Positions 140 through 10,817 of a stretch of 10,817 bases of DNA are shown here, piece by piece. Below the pieces are notes generated by a model that saw only the letters and a program-made list of their open reading frames with translations, was not told the origin of the DNA and did no database searches. The DNA lies in contig JAABTB010000049.1 of NCBI GenBank assembly GCA_011390085.1, forward strand, positions 1 through 10,817. The letters are read 5' to 3'. Each line of letters begins with the position of its first letter. Position 1 is the stretch's first letter. The stretch is from Desulfobacula sp. (GTDB taxonomy: Bacteria > Desulfobacterota > Desulfobacteria > Desulfobacterales > Desulfobacteraceae). The translations under genes and the position numbers were made by a program.

Positions 140-1867
140 TTGAAGCTGATTTATCCATATATCAAAAAAAATCTGTACAAGATTCTATTCGGCATCTTGT
201 GCATGGTCATCGTGGATGCCACCCAACTGATCGTTCCTCAGATCATCAAGCAGGCCGTTGATACTCTGGACAAAGGGTCTTTTGATTCAAACATCCTTTT
301 TTTTCAGTGCGGTTATATTCTTTTTCTGGGTTTTGTCATGGCTGTTTTAAGATATGGGTGGAGGAACCTTCTCATGGGAAGTGCGCGGGATCTTGAAAAC
401 GGTATCCGGGATGAGATTTTCAATCATATTCTGACCCTTGATATGGCCTATTATAACCGGACAAAGACAGGTGATATCATGGCCCATGCCACCAGTGACA
501 TCAACCATGTCCGGATGGCCTTCGGGTTTGGTCTGATCGCCATTGTTGATACGCTTCTTCTGGGGGGTGCCACCCTGGGCATCATGATCTGGACCCATCC
601 CACCCTGACCGCCTTGGCCATGATCCCCATGCCGTTTTTGGTGATGACGACCCGAAACCTCGGAAAAAAGATGCATACCCTTCATAAAACCGCCCAGGAA
701 TCATTTTCAAAACTCACCGAACTTGTGCGGGAAAGCTTTTTTGGTATCCGCATCATAAAAGTCTATAATTTTGAATCCATCATCCTTAACAAGGTAGAAA
801 AGGCTTCGAAAGATTATTTTAATAAAAACCTGAAACGGGCTTTTGTCAATGCAATCTTAAAACCCATGCTCATCCTTTTTTTCAATCTGTCCACCCTGAT
901 TATTCTTTTTTACGGGGGTTTTCTTGTGATGAAAGAGGCCCTCACCCCAGGCGAACTGGTCGCCTTTCTTCAATACCTTGGAATTCTTGCCTGGCCTGTT
1001 ATTGCCATCGGATGGATGACCAACCTCTTTCAAAGGGGAATGGCGTCTTTGAACAGAATCAATACCCTCCTGGATTCGAGGCCCGAAGTGGCCTCTCCCG
1101 GGCATCCGGCCGTTTTACCCGGCCTATCCGGACGTATCACCTTCAAGGATGTGAGTTTTGCCTATGGAAAGGACAATCCTGTTCTATCCAATATCATGCT
1201 CGTTGTGGAGCCGGGCATGTCCATCGGCATCACCGGTCCGCCGGGCTCGGGAAAAACCAGCCTTGTCCAGTTGATTCCGCGGCTCTACAATACGAGTTCC
1301 GGGAAAATCTTCCTGGATGGCTATGACCTTAACTCCCTGGACCTGAATTTTCTTCGGCAGAATATTGCATTTATGCCCCAGGAATCATTCCTTTTTTCAA
1401 GCACAATCCGGGATAATATTCTCATGGGCCGGTCTGTAAACGAGGAAAGGCTGGGCCGGATTATCGATGCCTGCTGCTTGAAAAAAACCCTTGAAAAAAT
1501 GCCGGAGGGACTTGATACGGTGGTGGGTGAAAGGGGGGTAACCCTTTCCGGCGGTCAGAAACAAAGAATTGCGCTTGCACGGACATTGGTCAACGAAAAA
1601 CCCATTGTCATTCTGGATGACCCTGTCAGTCAGGTGGATACCCATACCGCCTCCAAACTGATTGCAGCAATTCACCAGATGAACTCAGGATCTTCTTTCA
1701 TCATCATTTCCCACAGGATCTCCGCCCTGGCCTCCTGTGACAGGATCTATATCCTGAAAAACGGACGGGTAGACCATTCCGGAAGCCACCAGGAATTGAT
1801 TGAGACCAGCCGGTTCTATGGGGAATCCTTCAAGGTCCAGCAGTTTGAAGAGGAGAAGAATGCCTGA
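140..1867 (+). CDS. ABC exporter half-transporter, degenerate-site subunit (MdlA/BmrC/TM287-like)
   Basis: This 575-residue protein is an inner-membrane half-transporter with the usual type IV ABC exporter layout: six hydrophobic segments within about residues 12-295, then a nucleotide-binding domain from about 330. Visible ATPase elements are the A-loop Tyr342, Walker A GPPGSGKTS (366-374), Q-loop Gln414, an intact signature LSGGQ (469-473), Walker B IVILDD (489-494), D-loop SQVD (497-500) and switch His525. The residue after the Walker B Asp is Asp494, not the catalytic Glu. In known heterodimeric exporters (BmrC, TM287) this marks the subunit forming the non-hydrolysing site. The start is a TTG at 140; an in-frame TGA at 122-124 excludes an upstream ATG in this frame, and the ribosome binding site is weak. 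The next gene overlaps by 8 bases and should be its partner. The substrate cannot be read from sequence; this class moves drugs, lipids or peptides outward. Confidence 0.93.
   Translation: MKLIYPYIKKNLYKILFGILCMVIVDATQLIVPQIIKQAVDTLDKGSFDSNILFFQCGYILFLGFVMAVLRYGWRNLLMGSARDLENGIRDEIFNHILTLDMAYYNRTKTGDIMAHATSDINHVRMAFGFGLIAIVDTLLLGGATLGIMIWTHPTLTALAMIPMPFLVMTTRNLGKKMHTLHKTAQESFSKLTELVRESFFGIRIIKVYNFESIILNKVEKASKDYFNKNLKRAFVNAILKPMLILFFNLSTLIILFYGGFLVMKEALTPGELVAFLQYLGILAWPVIAIGWMTNLFQRGMASLNRINTLLDSRPEVASPGHPAVLPGLSGRITFKDVSFAYGKDNPVLSNIMLVVEPGMSIGITGPPGSGKTSLVQLIPRLYNTSSGKIFLDGYDLNSLDLNFLRQNIAFMPQESFLFSSTIRDNILMGRSVNEERLGRIIDACCLKKTLEKMPEGLDTVVGERGVTLSGGQKQRIALARTLVNEKPIVILDDPVSQVDTHTASKLIAAIHQMNSGSSFIIISHRISALASCDRIYILKNGRVDHSGSHQELIETSRFYGESFKVQQFEEEKNA
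1851..1855 (+). promoter_or_regulatory. Ribosome binding site for the second ABC exporter gene
   Basis: AGGAG lies 4 bases upstream of the ATG at 1860, inside the end of the preceding gene. It decides the start: an in-frame TTG at 1800 would add 20 residues (MRPAGSMG...) with no comparable site and a 68-base overlap. Confidence 0.7.
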
Positions 1868-3659
1868 GACATCCATTCCCATGGAAGAAAAAGAGATCAA
1901 ACTGGCCGATCTTTATCTTGCAAAAACCCTGTGGCCGTTTATCCGGCCCTATGCCTTCCTGCTTGGCCTGACAACACTGCTGGTTTTTATCGTCACCTTT
2001 TTTGAATTGCTCATGCCGATTCTCACTCAGAAAGCGTTTGACGGATTTATCCTTCCGGTGGGACCCGAAAAAGGGGCTCATCTTTTCGGGTTTGAAATCA
2101 CTTCCTTTTCAAACTTTTGTATCCTTTTTTCTGTTATTGTTCTTGTGTCCTTTGTCATTGATTTTTTCCAGAGCCTTCTCATGGAATATACCGGCCAAAC
2201 CATCATTTTAAATCTGAGGTGCAGCCTTTTTTCCCATATGGCCTTTCTGCCGGTTGCATTTTATGACAAAAACTCCAGCGGCCGACTGGTCTCAAGAGTG
2301 GCAGGCGATATTGAAAACATGAATGAAATGTTTACAAATGTCCTGATTTTTATTTTCAGGGATCTTTTTCTCATGATCGGGGTCCTGGTGATTTTATTCA
2401 GCATCAATATAAAACTTGCCCTTTACCTGACGGCCATGGTGCCGGTTATTGTGATCAGCATCACAATGTTTTCAAAAATCCTGAGAAAGGCTTTCAGGAC
2501 CATCCGCCAGAAACTCGCCGAGATCAATCACAGTTTTTCAGAAGCCATCACCGGCATCAAAATCATCCAGACCACGTCAAGCCGGGATCGGTTCATGGAA
2601 AAATTTAAATTTCTGAATTTTGAATATTTTTCCGCATCCCTGTTTCAGATCAGAATTTTTTCCATTTTTATGCCTTTCATCGGTTTCATGGGAGTGCTGA
2701 GTGTGGCCATCATCCTCTGGACCGGAAGCTTTAATGTAGTGGAGCAATCCTTGACCCTGGGAGAGCTTGTGGCCTTTCTATCTTATATGAAACTTTTTTT
2801 CAGACCCTTAAGGGATTTGTCTGAAACTTTTAATCTGCTCCAGAATGCCCTGGCCTCGGCAGAACGCATTATCAACGTCTTCAAACAAGAAAAAGCCAAA
2901 CAAAGAGCCCTCGTTCTTCGGGAACGCATCGATAAGATTTCCCACCTTTCATTAGACAAGGTAAATTTTTCATATTCGCAAGATAAGCCTGTATTAAAAA
3001 ACATATCTTTCCGTCTTCCCCCAAACCGGTCCATCGGCCTTGTCGGCCGGACCGGGTCCGGCAAAAGCTCCATTATCAACCTGATCACAGGTTTTTATGA
3101 GCCTGGGAGCGGAACGATTTCTTTTAATGGTATTGATCAAAAATCCATTAATATAGAAGATATCCGGAAAAGAACAGCCCTTGTCATGCAGGACCCTGTC
3201 CTTTTTTCCGGGACCATCGGGGAAAATATCACGCCGTCGGGGCTGGACATGGATCCTGCCAGGCTTGAAAAAGCATTATATGATGCCAACTGTAATTTTT
3301 TGTTTGAAAAATTTTCAGGGCTTGATACAAAAATTGAAGAAGAAGGCCGGCCCCTGTCCAGCGGAGAGAAGCAACTGGTCTGCATCGCCCGGGCCTTTGC
3401 CTTTGACCCGGATCTGATCATTTTTGATGAAGCCACCTCCTATATGGATTCCAATTCCGAGCAGAAGGTTCATGATGCCATGAAAAAACTGATGAAAGGG
3501 CGGCTGTCCATTATTATCGCCCACCGGCTCTCCACGGTCAGGGATTGTGACAGCATCCTTTTGTTAAGGGATGGAAGTATCCGGGAGCAGGGTTCCCACC
3601 ATGAACTGGTTGAACTCAAGGGAGAATATTATCATCTTCTGGAAAAAGAAAAAATCTGA
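1860..3659 (+). CDS. ABC exporter half-transporter, catalytic-site subunit (MdlB/BmrD/TM288-like)
   Basis: This 599-residue inner-membrane half-transporter is the second half of the exporter. Hydrophobic transmembrane segments occupy about residues 33-325 and the nucleotide-binding domain runs from about 362. Visible elements are Walker A GRTGSGKS (396-403), Q-loop Gln444, signature LSSGE (499-503), Walker B LIIFDE with catalytic Glu524, D-loop SYMD (527-530) and switch His555. The signature departs from LSGGQ, as it does in the TM288-type partner of heterodimeric exporters. The intact Glu here pairs with the intact signature of the upstream subunit to make the working ATP site. The departures in the two proteins are complementary, which is strong evidence that they form one heterodimer. 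A charged N-terminal extension of about 25 residues precedes the membrane domain. The gene overlaps the upstream stop by 8 bases, so translation is probably coupled. The substrate is unknown. Confidence 0.93.
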   Translation: MPETSIPMEEKEIKLADLYLAKTLWPFIRPYAFLLGLTTLLVFIVTFFELLMPILTQKAFDGFILPVGPEKGAHLFGFEITSFSNFCILFSVIVLVSFVIDFFQSLLMEYTGQTIILNLRCSLFSHMAFLPVAFYDKNSSGRLVSRVAGDIENMNEMFTNVLIFIFRDLFLMIGVLVILFSINIKLALYLTAMVPVIVISITMFSKILRKAFRTIRQKLAEINHSFSEAITGIKIIQTTSSRDRFMEKFKFLNFEYFSASLFQIRIFSIFMPFIGFMGVLSVAIILWTGSFNVVEQSLTLGELVAFLSYMKLFFRPLRDLSETFNLLQNALASAERIINVFKQEKAKQRALVLRERIDKISHLSLDKVNFSYSQDKPVLKNISFRLPPNRSIGLVGRTGSGKSSIINLITGFYEPGSGTISFNGIDQKSINIEDIRKRTALVMQDPVLFSGTIGENITPSGLDMDPARLEKALYDANCNFLFEKFSGLDTKIEEEGRPLSSGEKQLVCIARAFAFDPDLIIFDEATSYMDSNSEQKVHDAMKKLMKGRLSIIIAHRLSTVRDCDSILLLRDGSIREQGSHHELVELKGEYYHLLEKEKI

Positions 3660-3878: not shown

Positions 3879-4487
3879 ATGAATAACGCCCGAAAATCAA
3901 ACGAGCCTGACCCAACCCCGCATAAAAAAGTCACACCCGGTATAGGAGGCGATATGGCCGATGCCGGTAGTATGGACAAAATCCGCGACATCCTGTTCGG
4001 CCATCAGGCAAAAGACTATGAAAAACGATTTTTAAAGATGGAAAACCACCTTAACCAGGAAGTTGGCGAACTCAAGGACGAATTATTAAAGCGCATTAAT
4101 ACCTTGGAAGGGTACGTCAAACAGGAAATAAAGGATATCCATCAGCGGATTAAAAACGAATCCAATGAACGGGTTGAATCCGAGAAAACACTTCACAGAG
4201 AATTGAAAGAGGCGGTTGAATCTCTGACCAAAAAACTTTTAAATGATGAAGAAAATCTCTCTAAAAAATCCACTGAACTCCGGGATCAGATTCTGGAACA
4301 ATCCAAACAATTTTCTTCAGAAATCTTATCCAAGTTTGACCAGGCTGCAAACAATCTGAAAAAAGCGGCTCAAGAGCTTGATGAAGCAAAGGTGAACCGG
4401 TCGGATCTGTCCGGATTTTTTCTTGAAATTGCCATGCGGCTCTCCGGAGACGACAATATGGGATCAAAGAATAACACCCAAGCATGA
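3879..4487 (+). CDS. Soluble coiled-coil protein of a small-GTPase/OmpA gene cluster
   Basis: This 202-residue protein has no signal peptide or membrane segment and is probably cytoplasmic. The first 30 residues are low in structure (Pro, Gly, Lys). A short motif follows, MDKIRDILFGHQAKDYEKRF (32-51). Then comes a long Lys/Glu-rich heptad-like helix, about 50-172, typical of an extended coiled coil. A second motif, SDLSGFFLEIAMRLSG (175-190), sits near the C-terminus. I recall both end motifs from uncharacterised proteins encoded beside OmpA-domain and small-GTPase genes in other bacteria; this is memory, not a search. The layout suggests a scaffold or spacer joining two partners by its ends. 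It opens the cluster, 30 bases before the OmpA-domain gene. If the ATG at 3954 is used the product has 177 residues and keeps every conserved part. A biochemical function is not known. Confidence 0.8.
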   Translation: MNNARKSNEPDPTPHKKVTPGIGGDMADAGSMDKIRDILFGHQAKDYEKRFLKMENHLNQEVGELKDELLKRINTLEGYVKQEIKDIHQRIKNESNERVESEKTLHRELKEAVESLTKKLLNDEENLSKKSTELRDQILEQSKQFSSEILSKFDQAANNLKKAAQELDEAKVNRSDLSGFFLEIAMRLSGDDNMGSKNNTQA

Positions 4488-4517
4488 TTCAACGGATCTA
4501 AAAGAAAAGGATCTGCT

Positions 4518-6242
4518 ATGGATTCAGAGGCTGTTGAAGAAAAATCTCTTGAAGCTTTCAAAAATTTATTGCTTCAGCCTGAAAAAGATCGAATACGTCA
4601 GATAGAAAACCGTCTGAATGATCCGATGATCCGCGCCAAAGAAACCAGTCTGTTCCTGCCGGAAGCCATTTCCTTTTCTGTTTTGAACAGCAACAGATTA
4701 TCCCGTGTGATTCAACCGGTGATGGACGCGTCCCTTAAAGAATCCGTCCGGAATAACCCCAAATCCATTGCCGACGCAATTTTCCCTGCCCTGGGACCCG
4801 GCATCAGAAAGGCCATTTCATCCACTGTCATGGGAATGGTCCAGTCCCTGAATCAGTTGCTGAATCATAGTTTTTCCTTCCAGGGAATAAAATGGCGGTT
4901 TGAAGCCTTCAGAACAGGGAAGCAATTTGCAGAAATTGTTCTCCTGCATACGCTGGTATATAAGGTCGAGCAGATCTTTTTAATCCACAACGAATCCGGG
5001 ATTGTCCTGGACCACGTGACGGCAAAGGATGTCGTGATCCAGGACCCGGACCTGGTCTCCGGGATGCTGACGGCCATTCAGGACTTTGTCAAAGACTCCT
5101 TTGATATCCGGGATGACCTTGAAACACTCAGAATCGGTTCCGATAGAAGTGTATGGATTGAAAAAGGAAAACATGCCCTGATTGCCGCCGTGATCAGGGG
5201 AAACCCGCCCGTTGATCTGAGAATCAGGTTCAGGGAACTGCTTGAAGAAATCCATATCAAATCCGGGATGGCCCTGGAAAAATTTGAGGGGGATGCCTCC
5301 TCTTTTTCAATCTTCAGGGAACAATTGAAAGACGGGCTTGGATTTCAGAACAGAAAAGTGAAACAAAAGCTTTCTCCATTGCTCATATGCCTTATTTTAG
5401 CGGTTCTTTCCCTGGCAGGAATCTGGGGATACCATACCTTCAGATCCCATCAGATCTGGAATGCTTATTTAGACCGCCTTAAGGCTGAGAAAGGATTGAT
5501 CATCCTGTCCGCTCAAAAAGAAAAGGGGGTGTATCAGGTTTTCGGCCTTCGTGATCCAATGGTCGATGACCCTGAAGCCCTTCTCCAGCCGGAAGAAAAA
5601 TCCAGGATAAAGATTAGAGGCCATTGGACACCCTTTTACAGCCTTGATCCGGAGCTGATTTTACCAAGGTCCAGGCAAATCCTGAACCCACCGCCATCCA
5701 TAACCCTTGACCTGTCTCAGGGCATTCTCCTTGCTTCAGGGCAGGCTTCCCGGGACTGGATTGACATATTTCAAAAAACAGCTCCTACCATACCGGGTGT
5801 CAAAGGATATAGCGACCAGGGGGTCCTCAATATGGACAGAGAGAAACTGGATGCTGCATTAAAAGAGATCAGTGAAATAAAACTATATTTTGAAAACAAC
5901 AGCACTCGTTTCATAAAAGCCCAGGAAGATATTTTCAATAAACTTCTGGAAACCGTCCAAAATATCCAGGAACTTCAGATCAAGGCAAAAATCCAAGTGC
6001 AGATCATGATCCTCGGGCATACGGATTCATCCGGCACTGAATCTTTGAATCAAAGATTAAGCCGTGACAGGGCTGAGTTGGTTTTTAACCATTTGATCGT
6101 TCATGGAATCAATCCATATTTTCTCACCATTTCAGGGATTGGGACAAAAATTCCACTAAAATCAGAAACCGGGGCCGAGGAAAGACAATACAACAGGGCG
6201 GTGTCTTTTAAAGTATTCTACCCGTTAGGTGAAAAGGGCTGA
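4518..6242 (+). CDS. Membrane protein with cytoplasmic longin/roadblock-like domain and periplasmic OmpA-like domain
   Basis: The 574 residues fall into four parts. Residues 1-130 are helical, with a conserved-looking stretch IADAIFPALGPGIRKAI (84-100). Residues about 136-250 read as beta-beta-alpha-beta-beta-beta-alpha (EQIFLIH, GIVLDHV, helix 176-195, then strands near 203, 211 and 220), the order of longin/roadblock folds that partner small GTPases; this is inferred from the pattern. One transmembrane helix lies at about 285-305, with Lys/Arg before it (RKVKQK, 279-284). It is followed by a possible BON-like region (315-440) and an OmpA-like peptidoglycan-binding domain (about 450-567), with GHTDSSG at 500-506, LSRDRAELV at 514-522 and NRAVSF at 559-564. 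The topology should be N-in, C-out, tying the cell wall to the cytoplasm. There is no beta-barrel, so it is not an outer-membrane porin. An AAAGG site precedes the ATG. The gene ends 4 bases before the GTPase start, which suggests that the two proteins interact. Confidence 0.85.
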   Translation: MDSEAVEEKSLEAFKNLLLQPEKDRIRQIENRLNDPMIRAKETSLFLPEAISFSVLNSNRLSRVIQPVMDASLKESVRNNPKSIADAIFPALGPGIRKAISSTVMGMVQSLNQLLNHSFSFQGIKWRFEAFRTGKQFAEIVLLHTLVYKVEQIFLIHNESGIVLDHVTAKDVVIQDPDLVSGMLTAIQDFVKDSFDIRDDLETLRIGSDRSVWIEKGKHALIAAVIRGNPPVDLRIRFRELLEEIHIKSGMALEKFEGDASSFSIFREQLKDGLGFQNRKVKQKLSPLLICLILAVLSLAGIWGYHTFRSHQIWNAYLDRLKAEKGLIILSAQKEKGVYQVFGLRDPMVDDPEALLQPEEKSRIKIRGHWTPFYSLDPELILPRSRQILNPPPSITLDLSQGILLASGQASRDWIDIFQKTAPTIPGVKGYSDQGVLNMDREKLDAALKEISEIKLYFENNSTRFIKAQEDIFNKLLETVQNIQELQIKAKIQVQIMILGHTDSSGTESLNQRLSRDRAELVFNHLIVHGINPYFLTISGIGTKIPLKSETGAEERQYNRAVSFKVFYPLGEKG

Positions 6243-6246
6243 TGCA

Positions 6247-6744
6247 ATGATTAAAAAAAAAATTTGCCTGCTGGGCGCTTTTGCCGTGGGAAAAACCAGT
6301 CTGGTTCAGCGATATGTTCACAGTATTTTTTCAGAAAAATATCATACCACCGTTGGGGTGAGGATAGAAAAAACACAAGTCCGGGCCAATGACACGGATG
6401 TGGATCTGATTATCTGGGACCTGCATGGTGAAGATGATTTTCAGCATGTCCGGCTCTCCTATCTGAAAGGATCATCCGGCTGCATTTATGTGGCAGACGG
6501 AACACGGGAGAAGACCTTAATGACGGCCCTGAATTTAAAGGAAATAGCCGAAAACACGATAGGGGAAATCCCTTGTGTCCTGGTGATCAACAAACTGGAT
6601 CTAAAGGACCAATGGGAGATAGACCCCTTGGTTCTGGATGACATGAAACGCAACGGAATGATGATTTTTCAGACCAGCGCCAAAACAGGGGAAGTGGTTC
6701 AGCAGGCATTTCAACTGCTGACCCGGAAAATGATGGAAAAATAA
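6247..6744 (+). CDS. Rab/Ras-like small GTPase
   Basis: This 165-residue protein is a single small-GTPase domain and should act as a GTP/GDP switch at the cytoplasmic face. Visible elements are the P-loop GAFAVGKTS (10-18), the switch I Thr in YHTTVGV (32-38), G3 WDLHGED (57-63), G4 NKLD (115-118) and G5 TSAK (143-146). The G3 differs from the eukaryotic DTAGQE: Leu-His replaces Thr-Ala and Glu62 stands where Ras has catalytic Gln61. Slow intrinsic hydrolysis or dependence on a partner is therefore likely. No prenylation Cys or membrane segment is present, so membrane recruitment would have to come from a partner, presumably the upstream protein. I chose the ATG at 6247, with AAAAGGG at 6232-6238; a GTG at 6229 would add six residues, lacks a good site and overlaps the previous gene by 14 bases. 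It sits 4 bases after the OmpA-domain gene and 2 bases before the kinase gene, so it is probably co-translated with both. It belongs among the prokaryotic Ras-superfamily proteins of unknown function. Confidence 0.93.
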   Translation: MIKKKICLLGAFAVGKTSLVQRYVHSIFSEKYHTTVGVRIEKTQVRANDTDVDLIIWDLHGEDDFQHVRLSYLKGSSGCIYVADGTREKTLMTALNLKEIAENTIGEIPCVLVINKLDLKDQWEIDPLVLDDMKRNGMMIFQTSAKTGEVVQQAFQLLTRKMMEK

Positions 6745-6746
6745 AA

Positions 6747-8867
6747 ATGCAGCCCCCGATCACCTCTATTTTAGATAAAATCTGTCTTGAGATTTTCAAA
6801 GGCCACCGCCTTGCTTATTTTCTCATAAATTCATCAGGAACTATTGTTCAATCGGGTGGAAACCTTTCGCAACTGAATATCCCCACTCCTGGAAAAACCG
6901 ATAAAATTTCAGATATCATCATTTTCATGGAAGGAATTTTACCCTTAAAAGAGAAATCAATGGATTTTTCCTGTATTAAACTGCCTTCTGATATTTGTGT
7001 GGATGCCCTTTTGTTTCAGATTGAAAAAGACTATGGCCTCATTATCTGGGATTCTACCCAAAAAGAGGATTATTTGACCCAAACCCAGCAAAAATGCAAC
7101 GAACTGAGCCTGCTGATTGAAGGGCAGAAGAACCGGATGACCCGTCTTCATGATGACGCTTTTTTTGGGGACCTGTTCCAGGCATTGAATTTTGCCGTCC
7201 TTGAAATGAACGCCCATGGCCATTTTGTACTCACCGGAACGCCCCCGGCCTGGGTTCAACACATCCCTCAGTCCGCCCGGATACTATCCGGCATGGCCTA
7301 TCCGGAAGATGAGTTCAGTTTTCTTGGAAATTTTATCCAGGAGGCCAAATCACAATGGTCCAAACACCAGAATGAAAGCTTCAAGTCGGGCCTATGGATT
7401 GAAAAAGATGAGACAGGGAAGGAGCTTTTTTTCGAAGCGACGGCTGTTCATATTTATGGAAGAAAATTAATAATTATTTCCCACGACCTCCATCATCCCA
7501 TGGAAACAAATGCCATTATCCAGAAAGGCAGGGAACTGGCTTTGAGTTTTCACAGTCTGAAACGATCCGGCCGGAAACTCAAAGACATGCATGATGAACT
7601 TGAGATACGAGTGAAAGAAAGAACCAAAGACCTTGAAGAGGCAAACTTGAAGCTCGCCAATGAACTGAAGGAGCGCAAAAAGGTAGAAAAAGAGCGTGAA
7701 GAAATATCCAAACTATTACGCCAGTCCCAGAAAATGGAGGCCATCGGGACCCTTGCCGGTGGGATATCCCACGATTTCAACAATATCCTGGCTGCCATCA
7801 TCGGATTTACGGAATTATCCCTGGCCGAGACAAAGGACAATCCCTTGCTCAAAGACCGTCTTGAAAAAACCCTTTCCGCCTCCAACCGGGCAAAAGAACT
7901 GGTACGTCAGATTCTGACCTTCAGCCATCAAACCGAATATGAAAAAAAGCCCTTAAAGCTGAAACAAATTGTAACAGAGGTTCTCACTCTCTTGCAGACC
8001 TCTATACCGGCAAACATCCATATTGAAAAGGATCTGAAAAGCAACGCCTATATTCTTGCCGACCAGACTCAGATGCATCAGGTTATCATGAATCTGTGCA
8101 CCAATGCCTGGCACTCCATGAGAGAAACCGGCGGAACGCTTTGTCTTAAATTAAAAGATACGGTTATTTCATCAAAGGACCTTTTCAATCTCCCCGGACT
8201 GATTCCGGGCCGGTATCTTATGCTGTCGGTTCAGGATTCCGGCTGTGGCATAAAGCCTGATATTATCGAAAAAATTTTCGACCCTTATTTTACAACAAAG
8301 GATAAGGATAAAGGAACAGGGCTTGGGCTTTCCATCGTACACGGCATCGTCACAAAATTAAACGGAGCCGTCACCTTGGACAGCCAAATCGGTAAAGGCA
8401 GTAAATTTTCAATTTATCTGCCGGTCTTTGCCACACCGGATGAGATCAAGCCGGCAAAGGAGCTTCCCCCCCTTGGGAATAATGAAACCATTTTATTCGT
8501 AGATGACGAACCCTTTCAGAATGAGATGGCCGAACAGATTTTAAACCGGCTGGGATACCAGGTTGTGACATGCAATGATAGTGTTGAGGCCTTGGATCTC
8601 TTTACACATAAAAAAGATCGGTTTGATCTTGTGATAACAGACATGGCCATGCCCAAAATAACAGGGGATCAATTATCTGAGAAAATTTTAGAGCTCCGGC
8701 CGGATATTCCCATCCTTCTATGTTCAGGATATAGTGATGATATCAGTCCTGAACGCTTGGAAAAAATCGGTATCACCCAATACCTGATGAAACCGGTTAG
8801 CATGATGGAACTGGCCAAAGCCGTTCATGAGGCCCTGCAGAAGACAAGAAAAAAACCTGGATTATAG
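6747..8867 (+). CDS. Soluble hybrid sensor histidine kinase with PAS-like input and C-terminal receiver
   Basis: The 706 residues contain no membrane segment, so the signal must arrive inside the cell. Residues about 15-105 form a PAS-like domain with an unusual central motif FMEGILPL (60-67) ending in LIIWDST (98-104). A helical linker follows, then a second PAS-like domain (about 145-247). A coiled coil (280-325) leads to the dimerisation/phosphoacceptor domain, H-box His342 in GGISHDFNN. The ATPase domain shows N-box Asn453 (NLCTNA), DSGCGI (497-502), FDPYFTTK (511-518) and GTGLGLS (523-529). A receiver domain (about 580-697) has the acidic pair Asp586/Asp587, phosphoacceptor Asp632, Ser660 and Lys682. 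All catalytic residues are present, so it should autophosphorylate and pass phosphate to its own receiver. No Hpt protein or DNA-binding response regulator is encoded nearby, so the onward target is unknown. It starts 2 bases after the GTPase gene and has only a weak GGA site, suggesting translational coupling and a shared pathway. Confidence 0.93.
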   Translation: MQPPITSILDKICLEIFKGHRLAYFLINSSGTIVQSGGNLSQLNIPTPGKTDKISDIIIFMEGILPLKEKSMDFSCIKLPSDICVDALLFQIEKDYGLIIWDSTQKEDYLTQTQQKCNELSLLIEGQKNRMTRLHDDAFFGDLFQALNFAVLEMNAHGHFVLTGTPPAWVQHIPQSARILSGMAYPEDEFSFLGNFIQEAKSQWSKHQNESFKSGLWIEKDETGKELFFEATAVHIYGRKLIIISHDLHHPMETNAIIQKGRELALSFHSLKRSGRKLKDMHDELEIRVKERTKDLEEANLKLANELKERKKVEKEREEISKLLRQSQKMEAIGTLAGGISHDFNNILAAIIGFTELSLAETKDNPLLKDRLEKTLSASNRAKELVRQILTFSHQTEYEKKPLKLKQIVTEVLTLLQTSIPANIHIEKDLKSNAYILADQTQMHQVIMNLCTNAWHSMRETGGTLCLKLKDTVISSKDLFNLPGLIPGRYLMLSVQDSGCGIKPDIIEKIFDPYFTTKDKDKGTGLGLSIVHGIVTKLNGAVTLDSQIGKGSKFSIYLPVFATPDEIKPAKELPPLGNNETILFVDDEPFQNEMAEQILNRLGYQVVTCNDSVEALDLFTHKKDRFDLVITDMAMPKITGDQLSEKILELRPDIPILLCSGYSDDISPERLEKIGITQYLMKPVSMMELAKAVHEALQKTRKKPGL

Positions 8868-9638
8868 CCGGATAAGCCTGCCGGGTTCATGGGGTTTGGC
8901 CACATGAAGACCGATCTGTGAACCATTCAGGCTTTCTGAAACTTCCCGGGCAGCTTTTTGAGGATTGTTGTTCTCTTCACTGAGATGGGCCAGGACCACG
9001 TGCTTGAGCCGCTCTGTTTTGAGTTCCGACACCAGAATTTTTGCATCCAGATTGGACAAATGTCCCATTCTACCCTTGATCCGCTGTTTAAGATGCCAGG
9101 GATAGGAACCATTCATCAGCATTTCAGGGTCATGGTTGGATTCAAGATATAAAAGACTGCTGCCCTTCAAATGGTCTTTAACAAGATTGGTGACAATTCC
9201 CAGATCCGTTGCGATTCCTATTTTATGGTCTTTGTATTCCAGGGTCATCCCGGCCGGATCTTCGGCATCGTGGGAAATGGAAAACGGGTTGATCCGGATC
9301 TGATCAATGTTAAATGATGTACCGCACTCAAAAAAACGAAGGTCTTCTATTTTTCCCAGGCTTTGGCAGGCCCCGTAGGTCTTTGGGGTGATATATAAAG
9401 GCAGTTTATACCGGCGGCTTAATATGCCCGCCCCTTTGATATGGTCCGAATGTTCATGGGTGATGACGATGGCGGTCAGGCTTTCAGGATTAATATTCAA
9501 AAGGCCTAACCGCCTTTCCATTTCAACGCCGGAGAGCCCGGCGTCAATCAAAATGGAGTTGTTGCTGCACGAGACAAAGAGACTGTTCCCCCTGCTTCCG
9601 CTGGCAAGGGGACAGACACAGAATGAATTATTTTTCAT
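8862..9638 (-). CDS. Metallo-beta-lactamase-fold hydrolase, YycJ/WalJ-like
   Basis: This 258-residue cytoplasmic protein has the metallo-beta-lactamase fold. The first metal-binding motif is THEHSDH (60-66). Further likely ligands are His123 in [11 protein letters not shown], Asp145 in GIATDLG and His218 in LAHLSEENN. The N-terminal LASGSRGNS (11-19) and the segment [10 protein letters not shown] (165-174) are typical of the YycJ/WalJ group, small hydrolases often described as putative DNA exonucleases and otherwise poorly defined. Length and motifs are complete. On the minus strand an AAAGGAAG lies just before the ATG, and the gene begins inside the last 11 bases of pnp, so the two are almost certainly cotranscribed. 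Its stop faces the histidine kinase stop in a 6-base convergent overlap. Activity on nucleic acid is inferred from the family and the pnp link; it is not evident from sequence alone. Confidence 0.88.
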
Positions 9639-10817
9639 CTTCCTTTGCTGCTTTTAAACTCAGCTTTATCTTTCCGTCCTTTGTTATATCCAGTACCTTT
9701 ACCGATATGATATCGCCTTCCTTGACCACATCGGTGACTTTTTTAACCCTGTGATCCGCCAGTTCGGAAATATGCACCAGCCCGTCCGTTCCCTGCTTGA
9801 TATTGACAAAGGCCCCGAAGTCTGTGATTTTAACGACGGTTCCCTGATAGATCGTTCCGATTTCAGGATCAAGAGCAATGTCGGATACCCTTTTCAAGGC
9901 CTCTGCCGCATCTTGCTCATTTTCGGCTGCAATCTTGACAAGACCTGAATCATTCACCTCGATCACGGTATTGGTTTCGGCCTGGAGCGCCCGGATGACT
10001 TTGCCTCCCGGGCCGATGATCTCCCTGATCTTATCCGCATTGATCTGGATGCTCACAATCTTGGGGGCATGGGGAGAAACCTCTTCGCGCGAAGCCTGAA
10101 GGGTTTCCAGCATTTTATTCAGTATATGAATCCGGCCCGCCCTGGCTTGATTCAGGGCTTTCTCCATGATATCACGGGACAGTTCTTTGATCTTGATATC
10201 CATCTGGAGGGCTGTGACCCCTTCTGCGGTTCCGGCCACTTTAAAATCCATGTCGCCGAAATGATCCTCATCACCCAGGATATCAGAGAGTACGGCGATT
10301 TTGTCCCCCTCTTTGACCAGGCCCATGGCAATCCCGGACACCGGCGCTTTAATAGGAACGCCGCCATCCATCAAGGCCAGGGTGCCGGAACAGATCGTTC
10401 CCATGGAGGAACTGCCGTTGGATTCCATGACCTCTCCCACCAGGCGGATGGTATATTCAAAATCTTCCTGATTCGGCAGGATTTTTTCCAGGGCCCGGGT
10501 TGCCAGGTTGCCATGGCCGATATCCCTTCGACTGGGTCCGCCGGCACGCTTGGTTTCTCCCACTGAAAAGGCAGGGAAATTATAATGCAGCATGAAAGAC
10601 CGTGTTTCATTTCCGGACAAGGTTTCCACCCGTTGTTCATCCATTCCCGACCCCAGGGTCAAAACGCCCAGCACCTGGGTTTCACCCCTGGTAAACAGGG
10701 CTGAGCCATGCGGCCTCGGCAGGCTTCCCACTTCGCAGGTGATCTGCCGGATTTCGTCAAATGCCCGGCCGTCAATCCGTTTATCCTCTTTGAGGACAAT
10801 GTCTCGGCTGACCTGTT
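9628..10817 (-). CDS. pnp: Polynucleotide phosphorylase, C-terminal part (gene continues beyond the right edge)
   Basis: The visible 395 residues are the second half of polynucleotide phosphorylase, which degrades RNA 3' to 5' with phosphate and helps form the degradosome in many bacteria. The frame is open to the right edge and begins with [18 protein letters not shown], the entry to the second RNase PH domain. That domain shows [14 protein letters not shown], the phosphate-binding SSSM (135-138), and the acidic cluster [11 protein letters not shown] that likely supplies the catalytic metal-binding Asp residues. A KH domain with IIGPGG (266-271) and a C-terminal S1 domain with TDFGAFV (331-337) follow, and the protein ends in KEDEK. 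The order and spacing match full-length enzymes of about 700 residues, so roughly 300 residues lie outside the window. An internal GTG at 10731 is a Val within the domain and is not a start. The stop overlaps the hydrolase start by 11 bases. Confidence 0.97.

What the first reader, a model, noticed from the sequence alone, without database searches (positions are those of the whole stretch)
3879..8867. Four-gene cluster linking a cell-wall-anchored membrane protein, a Rab-like GTPase and a phosphorelay
The coiled-coil, longin/OmpA, small-GTPase and PAS-kinase-receiver genes lie on one strand with gaps of 30, 4 and 2 bases behind one plausible promoter. The combination implies a pathway in which wall or envelope state is sensed through a peptidoglycan-binding domain, converted to a GTP switch and read by a soluble kinase. 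Small GTPases in bacteria are mostly known from MglA polarity systems, and I know of no assigned function for this set. I have some memory of similar neighbours in cyanobacteria and other phyla, so the module may be widespread yet undescribed.
Basis: partly seen in the sequence, partly recalled or inferred. Interest (0 to 1): 0.78.

Follow-up and report, generated by a model that had tools for sequence, protein, structure and literature searches.

The report
Bacterial Rab-like GTPase signalling operon
Four neighbouring genes form a small signalling module around a bacterial relative of the Rab switch proteins; the gene set was described in 2014 without a known job, and here its membrane protein is predicted to carry a longin-like domain, a fold that regulators of Rab proteins use in cells like ours.

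Summary
In detail: four co-directional genes (gaps 30, 4, 2) encode a coiled coil, a membrane protein with an OmpA domain, a Rab-like GTPase and a soluble hybrid histidine kinase. The promoter is not above chance. The set is not undescribed: Wuichet and Sogaard-Andersen (2014) defined this neighbourhood as the Group 1 Rup system, uncharacterised. Added here: (1) the membrane protein's unknown domain is predicted as longin-like (best matches: a Fuzzy-Inturned chain, SNARE longins, TRAPP); no sequence profile confirms it; (2) the kinase N-terminus is two PAS-like domains, each followed by a helix with a near-invariant glutamine, and elsewhere these sit on histidine kinases, GGDEF, HD, sigma-54, cyclase or SpoIIE outputs; (3) in two genomes of the Nitrospira phylum GTPase and PAS domain are fused, followed by a TIR-NTPase-TPR gene; (4) of 740 genomes from four phyla, 48 have the membrane protein, 50 the GTPase, 48 both. 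Most likely mechanism: the wall-tethered longin protein controls the GTPase, which acts on the PAS domains to set the output. Direction, GEF/GAP roles and signal are inferred. The window is a new member of a known kind.

The parts
3879..4487 (+). coiled-coil protein (CC), 202 aa; first gene of the module
   Evidence: ORF; orthologue just upstream of the membrane-protein gene in 77 of 80 loci
4518..6242 (+). membrane protein (OMP), 574 aa: helical N-terminus, longin-like domain, TM helix, periplasmic part, OmpA domain
4953..5351 (+). predicted longin-like domain, aa 146-278 (beta-beta-alpha-beta-beta-beta-alpha-alpha)
5370..5426 (+). transmembrane helix, aa 285-303, preceded by RKVKQK (N-terminus inside, inferred)
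   Evidence: hydropathy
5886..6197 (+). OmpA domain, aa 457-560
   Evidence: Pfam PF00691 E 1.1e-12; PDB relatives YiaD, Rv0899, Pal
6247..6744 (+). Rab-like small GTPase (Group 1 Rup type), 165 aa
   Evidence: Pfam Ras E 2.7e-30 (on the 171-aa reading); closest PDB sequence Rab-23, E 1.5e-25
6415..6435 (+). G3 motif WDLHGED: Asp kept, catalytic Gln replaced by Glu
   Evidence: sequence; 73 GTPases of the 80 loci: Glu 57, Asp 12, Ala 3, Thr 1, Gln 0
6747..8867 (+). soluble hybrid histidine kinase, 706 aa
6747..7157 (+). effector domain A (DA), PAS-like, aa 1-137; Q115 in the following helix is present in every row with a residue there (51-row alignment)
   Evidence: a separate ORF in most cyanobacterial loci
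7164..7580 (+). effector domain B (ADP), PAS-like, aa 140-278; Q259 in the following helix is present in 98% of rows with a residue there (65-row alignment)
   Evidence: fused to the GTPase in L183 and L184
7746..7928 (+). HisKA domain, aa 334-394
   Evidence: Pfam E 1.5e-10
8061..8426 (+). HATPase_c, aa 439-560
   Evidence: Pfam E 1.2e-21
8490..8825 (+). receiver domain, aa 582-693
   Evidence: Pfam E 1.3e-22

Best explanation
A Group 1 Rup signalling module. The second protein is an inner-membrane receptor: its OmpA domain grips peptidoglycan and its cytoplasmic longin-like domain binds the Rab-like GTPase and governs its nucleotide state (inferred: GEF-like, as longin platforms act on eukaryotic Rabs). 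The GTP-bound GTPase contacts the PAS-like domains A and B at the N-terminus of the fourth protein and so sets its kinase output. The GTPase lacks the G3 glutamine; hydrolysis is either helped in trans by the glutamine on the PAS signalling helices (the suggestion of Wuichet and Sogaard-Andersen) or driven by the acidic residue in its place. The coiled coil is a constant cytoplasmic partner of unknown role. Shown: gene set, order, co-occurrence, modular outputs, one type of GTPase-PAS fusion. Predicted: longin and PAS folds. Inferred: binding, direction, GEF/GAP roles, wall state as the signal.
For: Order CC-OMP-GTPase-output (a protein with domain A or B) in 66 of 80 loci. Of the other 14, 5 miss a part at a contig end (L104, L117, L135, L158, L165), 4 have the GTPase elsewhere in the locus (L101, L112, L115, L119) and 5 lack a part (L109, L113, L114, L134, L142). 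Membrane protein in 48 and GTPase in 50 of 740 genomes of four phyla, both in 48, 3.2 expected. GTPase next downstream on the same strand: 20 of 23, 3 of 5 and 13 of 13 loci in the phyla of the Nostoc, Blastocatellia and Nitrospira centres, and 10 of 13 in other families of the window's phylum. Longin-like model. GTPase-domain B fusions in L183 and L184. Outputs change while domains A/B stay. Flanks differ: of 9 complete loci of the family only L026 shows the window's ABC and MBL/PNP neighbours, and the split G034 locus (L019 and L032) shows them too.
Against: No longin family matches by sequence: none in the window protein at E up to 0.5, none among the 25 of 48 families shown for 65 members; one member matches Robl_LC7 at E 0.024. 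The profile found no useful PDB relative. Foldseek ranks the roadblock protein MglB first (E 1.8e-4); SNARE and adaptor longins, which are not exchange factors (recalled), tie with the GEF chains. Longin and PAS folds cross-match: the same CPLANE chain is rank 33 for the kinase model. Mean pLDDT falls to 54-78 at aa 51-120, and pTM is 0.55. No complex was predicted. An output with domain A/B was found beside only 6 of 13 phylum loci by the profile used there. Some GTPases have no membrane protein beside them (L030, L031, L033, L091, L092; 4 of 24 in the cyanobacterial census). Domain A was found in 42 and domain B in 66 of 80 loci, so neither glutamine is present in every locus.
Confidence: 0.6

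Rival explanations
1. Reverse flow: the kinase/PAS protein senses a cytoplasmic cue, and the GTPase is the output that acts on the membrane protein or wall, as was proposed for actinobacterial conservons.
For: PAS-like domains are usual sensors (fold match). PMC4316618 posits the GTPase as output of conservons.
Against: The fourth gene carries recognisable output enzymes of many kinds (GGDEF, HD, cyclase, sigma-54 activator, SpoIIE), as expected of the end of a pathway.
Confidence: 0.17
2. Positional scaffold: the wall-anchored longin protein recruits GTPase and enzyme to a place (septum, pole), and the nucleotide state sets location, not enzyme activity, as with MglA polarity.
For: OmpA tether and constant coiled coil; SNARE and adaptor longins among the best matches.
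Against: Messenger and transcription outputs gain little from a fixed place (argument); GTPase-PAS fusions suggest a direct switch.
Confidence: 0.17
3. Unrelated genes that merely share an operon.
For: Flanks vary, so transfer as a block could keep neighbours together.
Against: Same order in eight phyla, all 48 genomes with the membrane protein also have the GTPase, GTPase-PAS fusion.
Confidence: 0.03

Closest known systems
Group 1 Rup systems (Wuichet and Sogaard-Andersen 2014, PMC4316618)
   Same: Coiled coil; conserved domain-TM-OmpA protein; Ras-like GTPase without G3 glutamine; output protein (histidine kinase or c-di-GMP enzyme) whose N-terminal region has an invariant glutamine; all neighbours
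   Different: The section read gives no fold for the unknown domain and names as typical outputs only c-di-GMP enzymes and histidine kinases. Here: longin-like prediction, two PAS-like effector domains, further outputs, GTPase-PAS fusion
MglA/MglB polarity systems
Actinobacterial conservons (CvnA-D)
   Same: Small GTPase, histidine kinase and two further proteins in an operon
   Different: Conservon uses an MglB-type roadblock and MglA-type GTPase; here longin-OmpA protein and Rup GTPase
Eukaryotic longin Rab regulators (Fuzzy-Inturned/Rab23, TRAPP, Mon1-Ccz1)
   Same: Longin-class fold beside a Rab-like GTPase; closest PDB sequence of the GTPase is Rab-23 and top fold match of its partner is a chain of the Fuzzy-Inturned complexes, by length taken to be Fuzzy
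   Different: One longin-like domain on a wall-anchored membrane protein; no sequence similarity; exchange untested; SNARE longins tie in score

Membership tests
Group 1 Rup system | single-domain Ras-superfamily GTPase of 150-240 aa | tested here: met
   165 aa from the ATG; Pfam Ras E 2.7e-30
Group 1 Rup system | G3 aspartate kept and catalytic glutamine absent | tested here: met
   WDLHGED in the window; 0 of 73 relatives (all with E < 1e-50 in the 80 loci; 4 weaker ones not counted) have Gln
Group 1 Rup system | not coupled to an MglB homologue | tested here: met
   no Robl_LC7 among the Pfam families shown for the 8 window proteins at E up to 1 (for the coiled coil 25 of 29 shown); the longin-like domain is similar in fold only
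Group 1 Rup system | neighbouring coiled-coil gene | tested here: met
   3879-4487; family conserved upstream in 77 of 80 loci
Group 1 Rup system | neighbouring protein with conserved domain, TM helix and OmpA domain | tested here: met
Group 1 Rup system | neighbouring output protein whose N-terminal region has an invariant glutamine | tested here: met
   hybrid kinase; Q115 and Q259. That one of these is the glutamine of the paper's logo is inferred; figures are not held
Group 1 Rup system | branches within Group 1 in a GTPase tree | not tested
   no tree was built
Longin domain | beta-beta-alpha-beta-beta-beta-alpha-alpha topology | tested here: met
Longin domain | profile match to a longin family | tested here: not met
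   none in the window protein at E up to 0.5, none among the 25 of 48 families shown for 65 members
Rab GEF | nucleotide exchange on the cognate GTPase | not testable with these tools
   needs biochemistry
MglA/MglB | roadblock-domain partner gene | tested here: not met
   none among the window proteins

The most novel reading that the evidence does not exclude
Bacteria hold a complete receptor-Rab-effector pathway: a peptidoglycan-anchored transmembrane longin protein acts as exchange factor for a Rab-like GTPase, whose dedicated PAS effector domains plug into almost any output (phosphorelay, c-di-GMP, cyclic nucleotides, sigma-54 transcription, SpoIIE phosphatase, TIR-NTPase). The Rab-longin pairing would then exist in bacteria outside membrane traffic, as an envelope-stress switch.
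Probability: 0.35. Interest if true: 0.85.

Novelty: new member of a known kind. Interest (0 to 1): 0.55.

Why it matters
[quoted passage not shown] A predicted longin-like receptor and a transplantable GTPase-effector domain give concrete binding partners to test. If right, wall state is linked to second messengers and transcription through a GTP switch, and the Rab-longin partnership may predate membrane traffic.

Tried and rejected
Promoter claim: at chance level. Pfam for a longin or PAS match in the window proteins: none. Profiles against PDB sequences: one match at E 0.24 for the OMP N-terminus, none at E up to 1 for the kinase N-terminus. Homology of domains A and B by hhalign: probability 5%, so only the helix motif is similar; OMP against A or B: 0.1% and 2.9%. 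A 3113-aa membrane-protein fusion in L066 is an artefact: frames there run through a stretch of X (unknown bases). PADLOC: weak ZorB/ZorA matches of the OmpA and coiled-coil parts, judged shared architecture. Domain B was not searched alone by fold; the matches listed mostly cover domain A. Literature: eight searches listed no experimental study of a Group 1 Rup system and no bacterial longin-Rup pairing; the library holds open papers only and I read listings. Of papers, PMC4316618 was seen as abstract, passages and section 18 in full; PMC3521125, PMC10933270, PMC4917890, PMC7159879, PMC4915359 and PMC13015309 as passages.

Counting choices: I counted only matches reaching the N-terminal part at E below 1e-50 (13 genomes plus the window's own) and dropped OmpA-domain-only matches (216 of 395 genomes match at E up to 1e-5). 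Thresholds differ between census calls (1e-25 or 1e-30; my 1e-50 cut), as do queries (window protein and A1 in the window's phylum, A4 and A6 elsewhere). Three census centres (G480-G482) were chosen because they carry the module and are counted. In G190 and G347 (own phylum), G562 (cyanobacterial census) and G655 (Acidobacteriota census) GTPase and membrane protein are on different contigs. Relatedness of genomes is not corrected for. Domain A and B profiles were iterated on the same loci, and the alignments hold some near-duplicate rows; first-pass domain A matches are. Phyla of the 80 loci were assigned by me from record titles. Fuzzy and Trs23 chain names are inferred from chain length and entry title.

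Full report
Observation. The closest relatives of the GTPase that bear an organism name are from Desulfobacula. Four + strand ORFs at 3879-4487, 4518-6242, 6247-6744 and 6747-8867 leave gaps of 30, 4 and 2 bases. Pfam finds OmpA in the second, Ras in the third, and HisKA, HATPase_c and receiver in the fourth; the first has only matches under the curated cut-offs (25 of 29 shown), several to coiled-coil families. The 219-base gap before the first gene holds one weak sigma-70-like site, and the region has no more such sites than shuffles. Upstream lie two half-size ABC exporters, downstream a convergent metallo-beta-lactamase-fold gene and a polynucleotide phosphorylase-like gene.

Prior description. 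Section 18 of PMC4316618 (Wuichet and Sogaard-Andersen 2014), read in full, says that Group 1 Rup GTPases lie beside three conserved genes: a coiled-coil protein; a protein with a conserved unknown domain, often followed by a TM helix and an OmpA domain; and an output protein, typically a c-di-GMP enzyme or histidine kinase, with an invariant glutamine in its N-terminal region. It notes that these GTPases lack the G3 glutamine. The window meets each feature tested; tree placement was not tested. The finding is therefore not a new system.

Spread. In the family, 12 of 86 genomes have the GTPase, the window's own included. Of 16 places fetched, 9 hold the complete order, L021 has it with a cut kinase, L019 and L032 are one locus split over two contigs, L034 is in pieces, and three divergent GTPases (L030, L031, L033; 45-48% identical) lack the first two genes, though L030 has a domain B protein. 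In 13 loci from other families of the phylum, CC and OMP are together in 13 of 13; the GTPase follows co-directionally in 10, lies convergently in L067, and is not in the locus in L066 and L073; an output with domain A or B was recognised in 6 of 13. Of the best 80, 66 have the full order, 77 have CC and 72 the GTPase in place. By record titles the 80 cover Desulfobacterota (20), Cyanobacteriota (20), Nitrospirota (15), Acidobacteriota (12), Gammaproteobacteria (4), Verrucomicrobiota (4), one each of Chloroflexota, Actinomycetota, Latescibacterota and CSSED10-310, and one unassigned; the 66 come from eight of these phyla and the unassigned one. Census: own phylum OMP 14, GTPase 15 of 395; phylum of L129 19 and 20 of 146; of L116 5 and 5 of 99; of L139 10 and 10 of 100. 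All 48 OMP genomes have the GTPase; 3.2 would be expected by chance. A more distant cyanobacterial subfamily keeps CC, OMP and GTPase in order in L174, L176, L178 and L179; in L175 and L177 no GTPase was found, and in L180 no CC.

GTPase. Closest PDB sequences are Rab-23 (E 1.5e-25) and a Thorarchaeota Rab. Position 62 is Glu here; among 73 relatives Glu 57, Asp 12, Ala 3, Thr 1, Gln 0; five more distant ones have Thr, Lys, Lys, Ser and Arg. I recall, from no call, that Glu at this place speeds intrinsic hydrolysis in Ras.

Fusion and TIR. In two genomes of the Nitrospira census the GTPase and domain B are one ORF (365 and 337 aa), and in a third they are separate neighbours; in all three the next gene, 24-99 bases on, encodes a protein with TIR, NTPase and TPR matches. 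A fusion is the best genomic sign that GTPase and PAS domain touch.

Reading. Receptor, switch, effector and exchangeable output is the simplest account. Which way nucleotide exchange runs, what the wall signal is and what the coiled coil does remain inference.

Noticed in passing
L183:700-4695, L184:1198-5235, L187:6412-10449: Second copies of the module in three genomes of the Nitrospira census lead into a TIR-NTPase-TPR gene of 957-981 aa; in two the GTPase is fused to the PAS-like domain B.
   Followed up: partly
L174, L176, L178, L179, L180: A distant cyanobacterial subfamily with larger membrane proteins (724-1263 aa) and GTPase matches at E 1e-44 to 1e-47; CC-OMP-GTPase order kept in the first four, no CC seen in L180.
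   Followed up: partly
L173:2252-7569: Mesorhizobium plasmid carries CC-OmpA-Rab GTPase-adenylate/guanylate cyclase.
   Followed up: partly
L116:10804-11936: Two GTPases of the family in tandem.
   Followed up: no
window 140-3659: Two overlapping half-size ABC exporter genes upstream; also beside the module in L026 and L032, not seen in the other loci of the family.
   Followed up: partly
window 8862-10815: Convergent metallo-beta-lactamase-fold gene overlapping the kinase end by 6 bases, then a polynucleotide phosphorylase-like gene.
   Followed up: no
L031:8830-9435, L033:2460-3026: Divergent GTPases (45-47% identical) with no coiled coil or membrane protein of the module in the fetched stretch.
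   Followed up: partly
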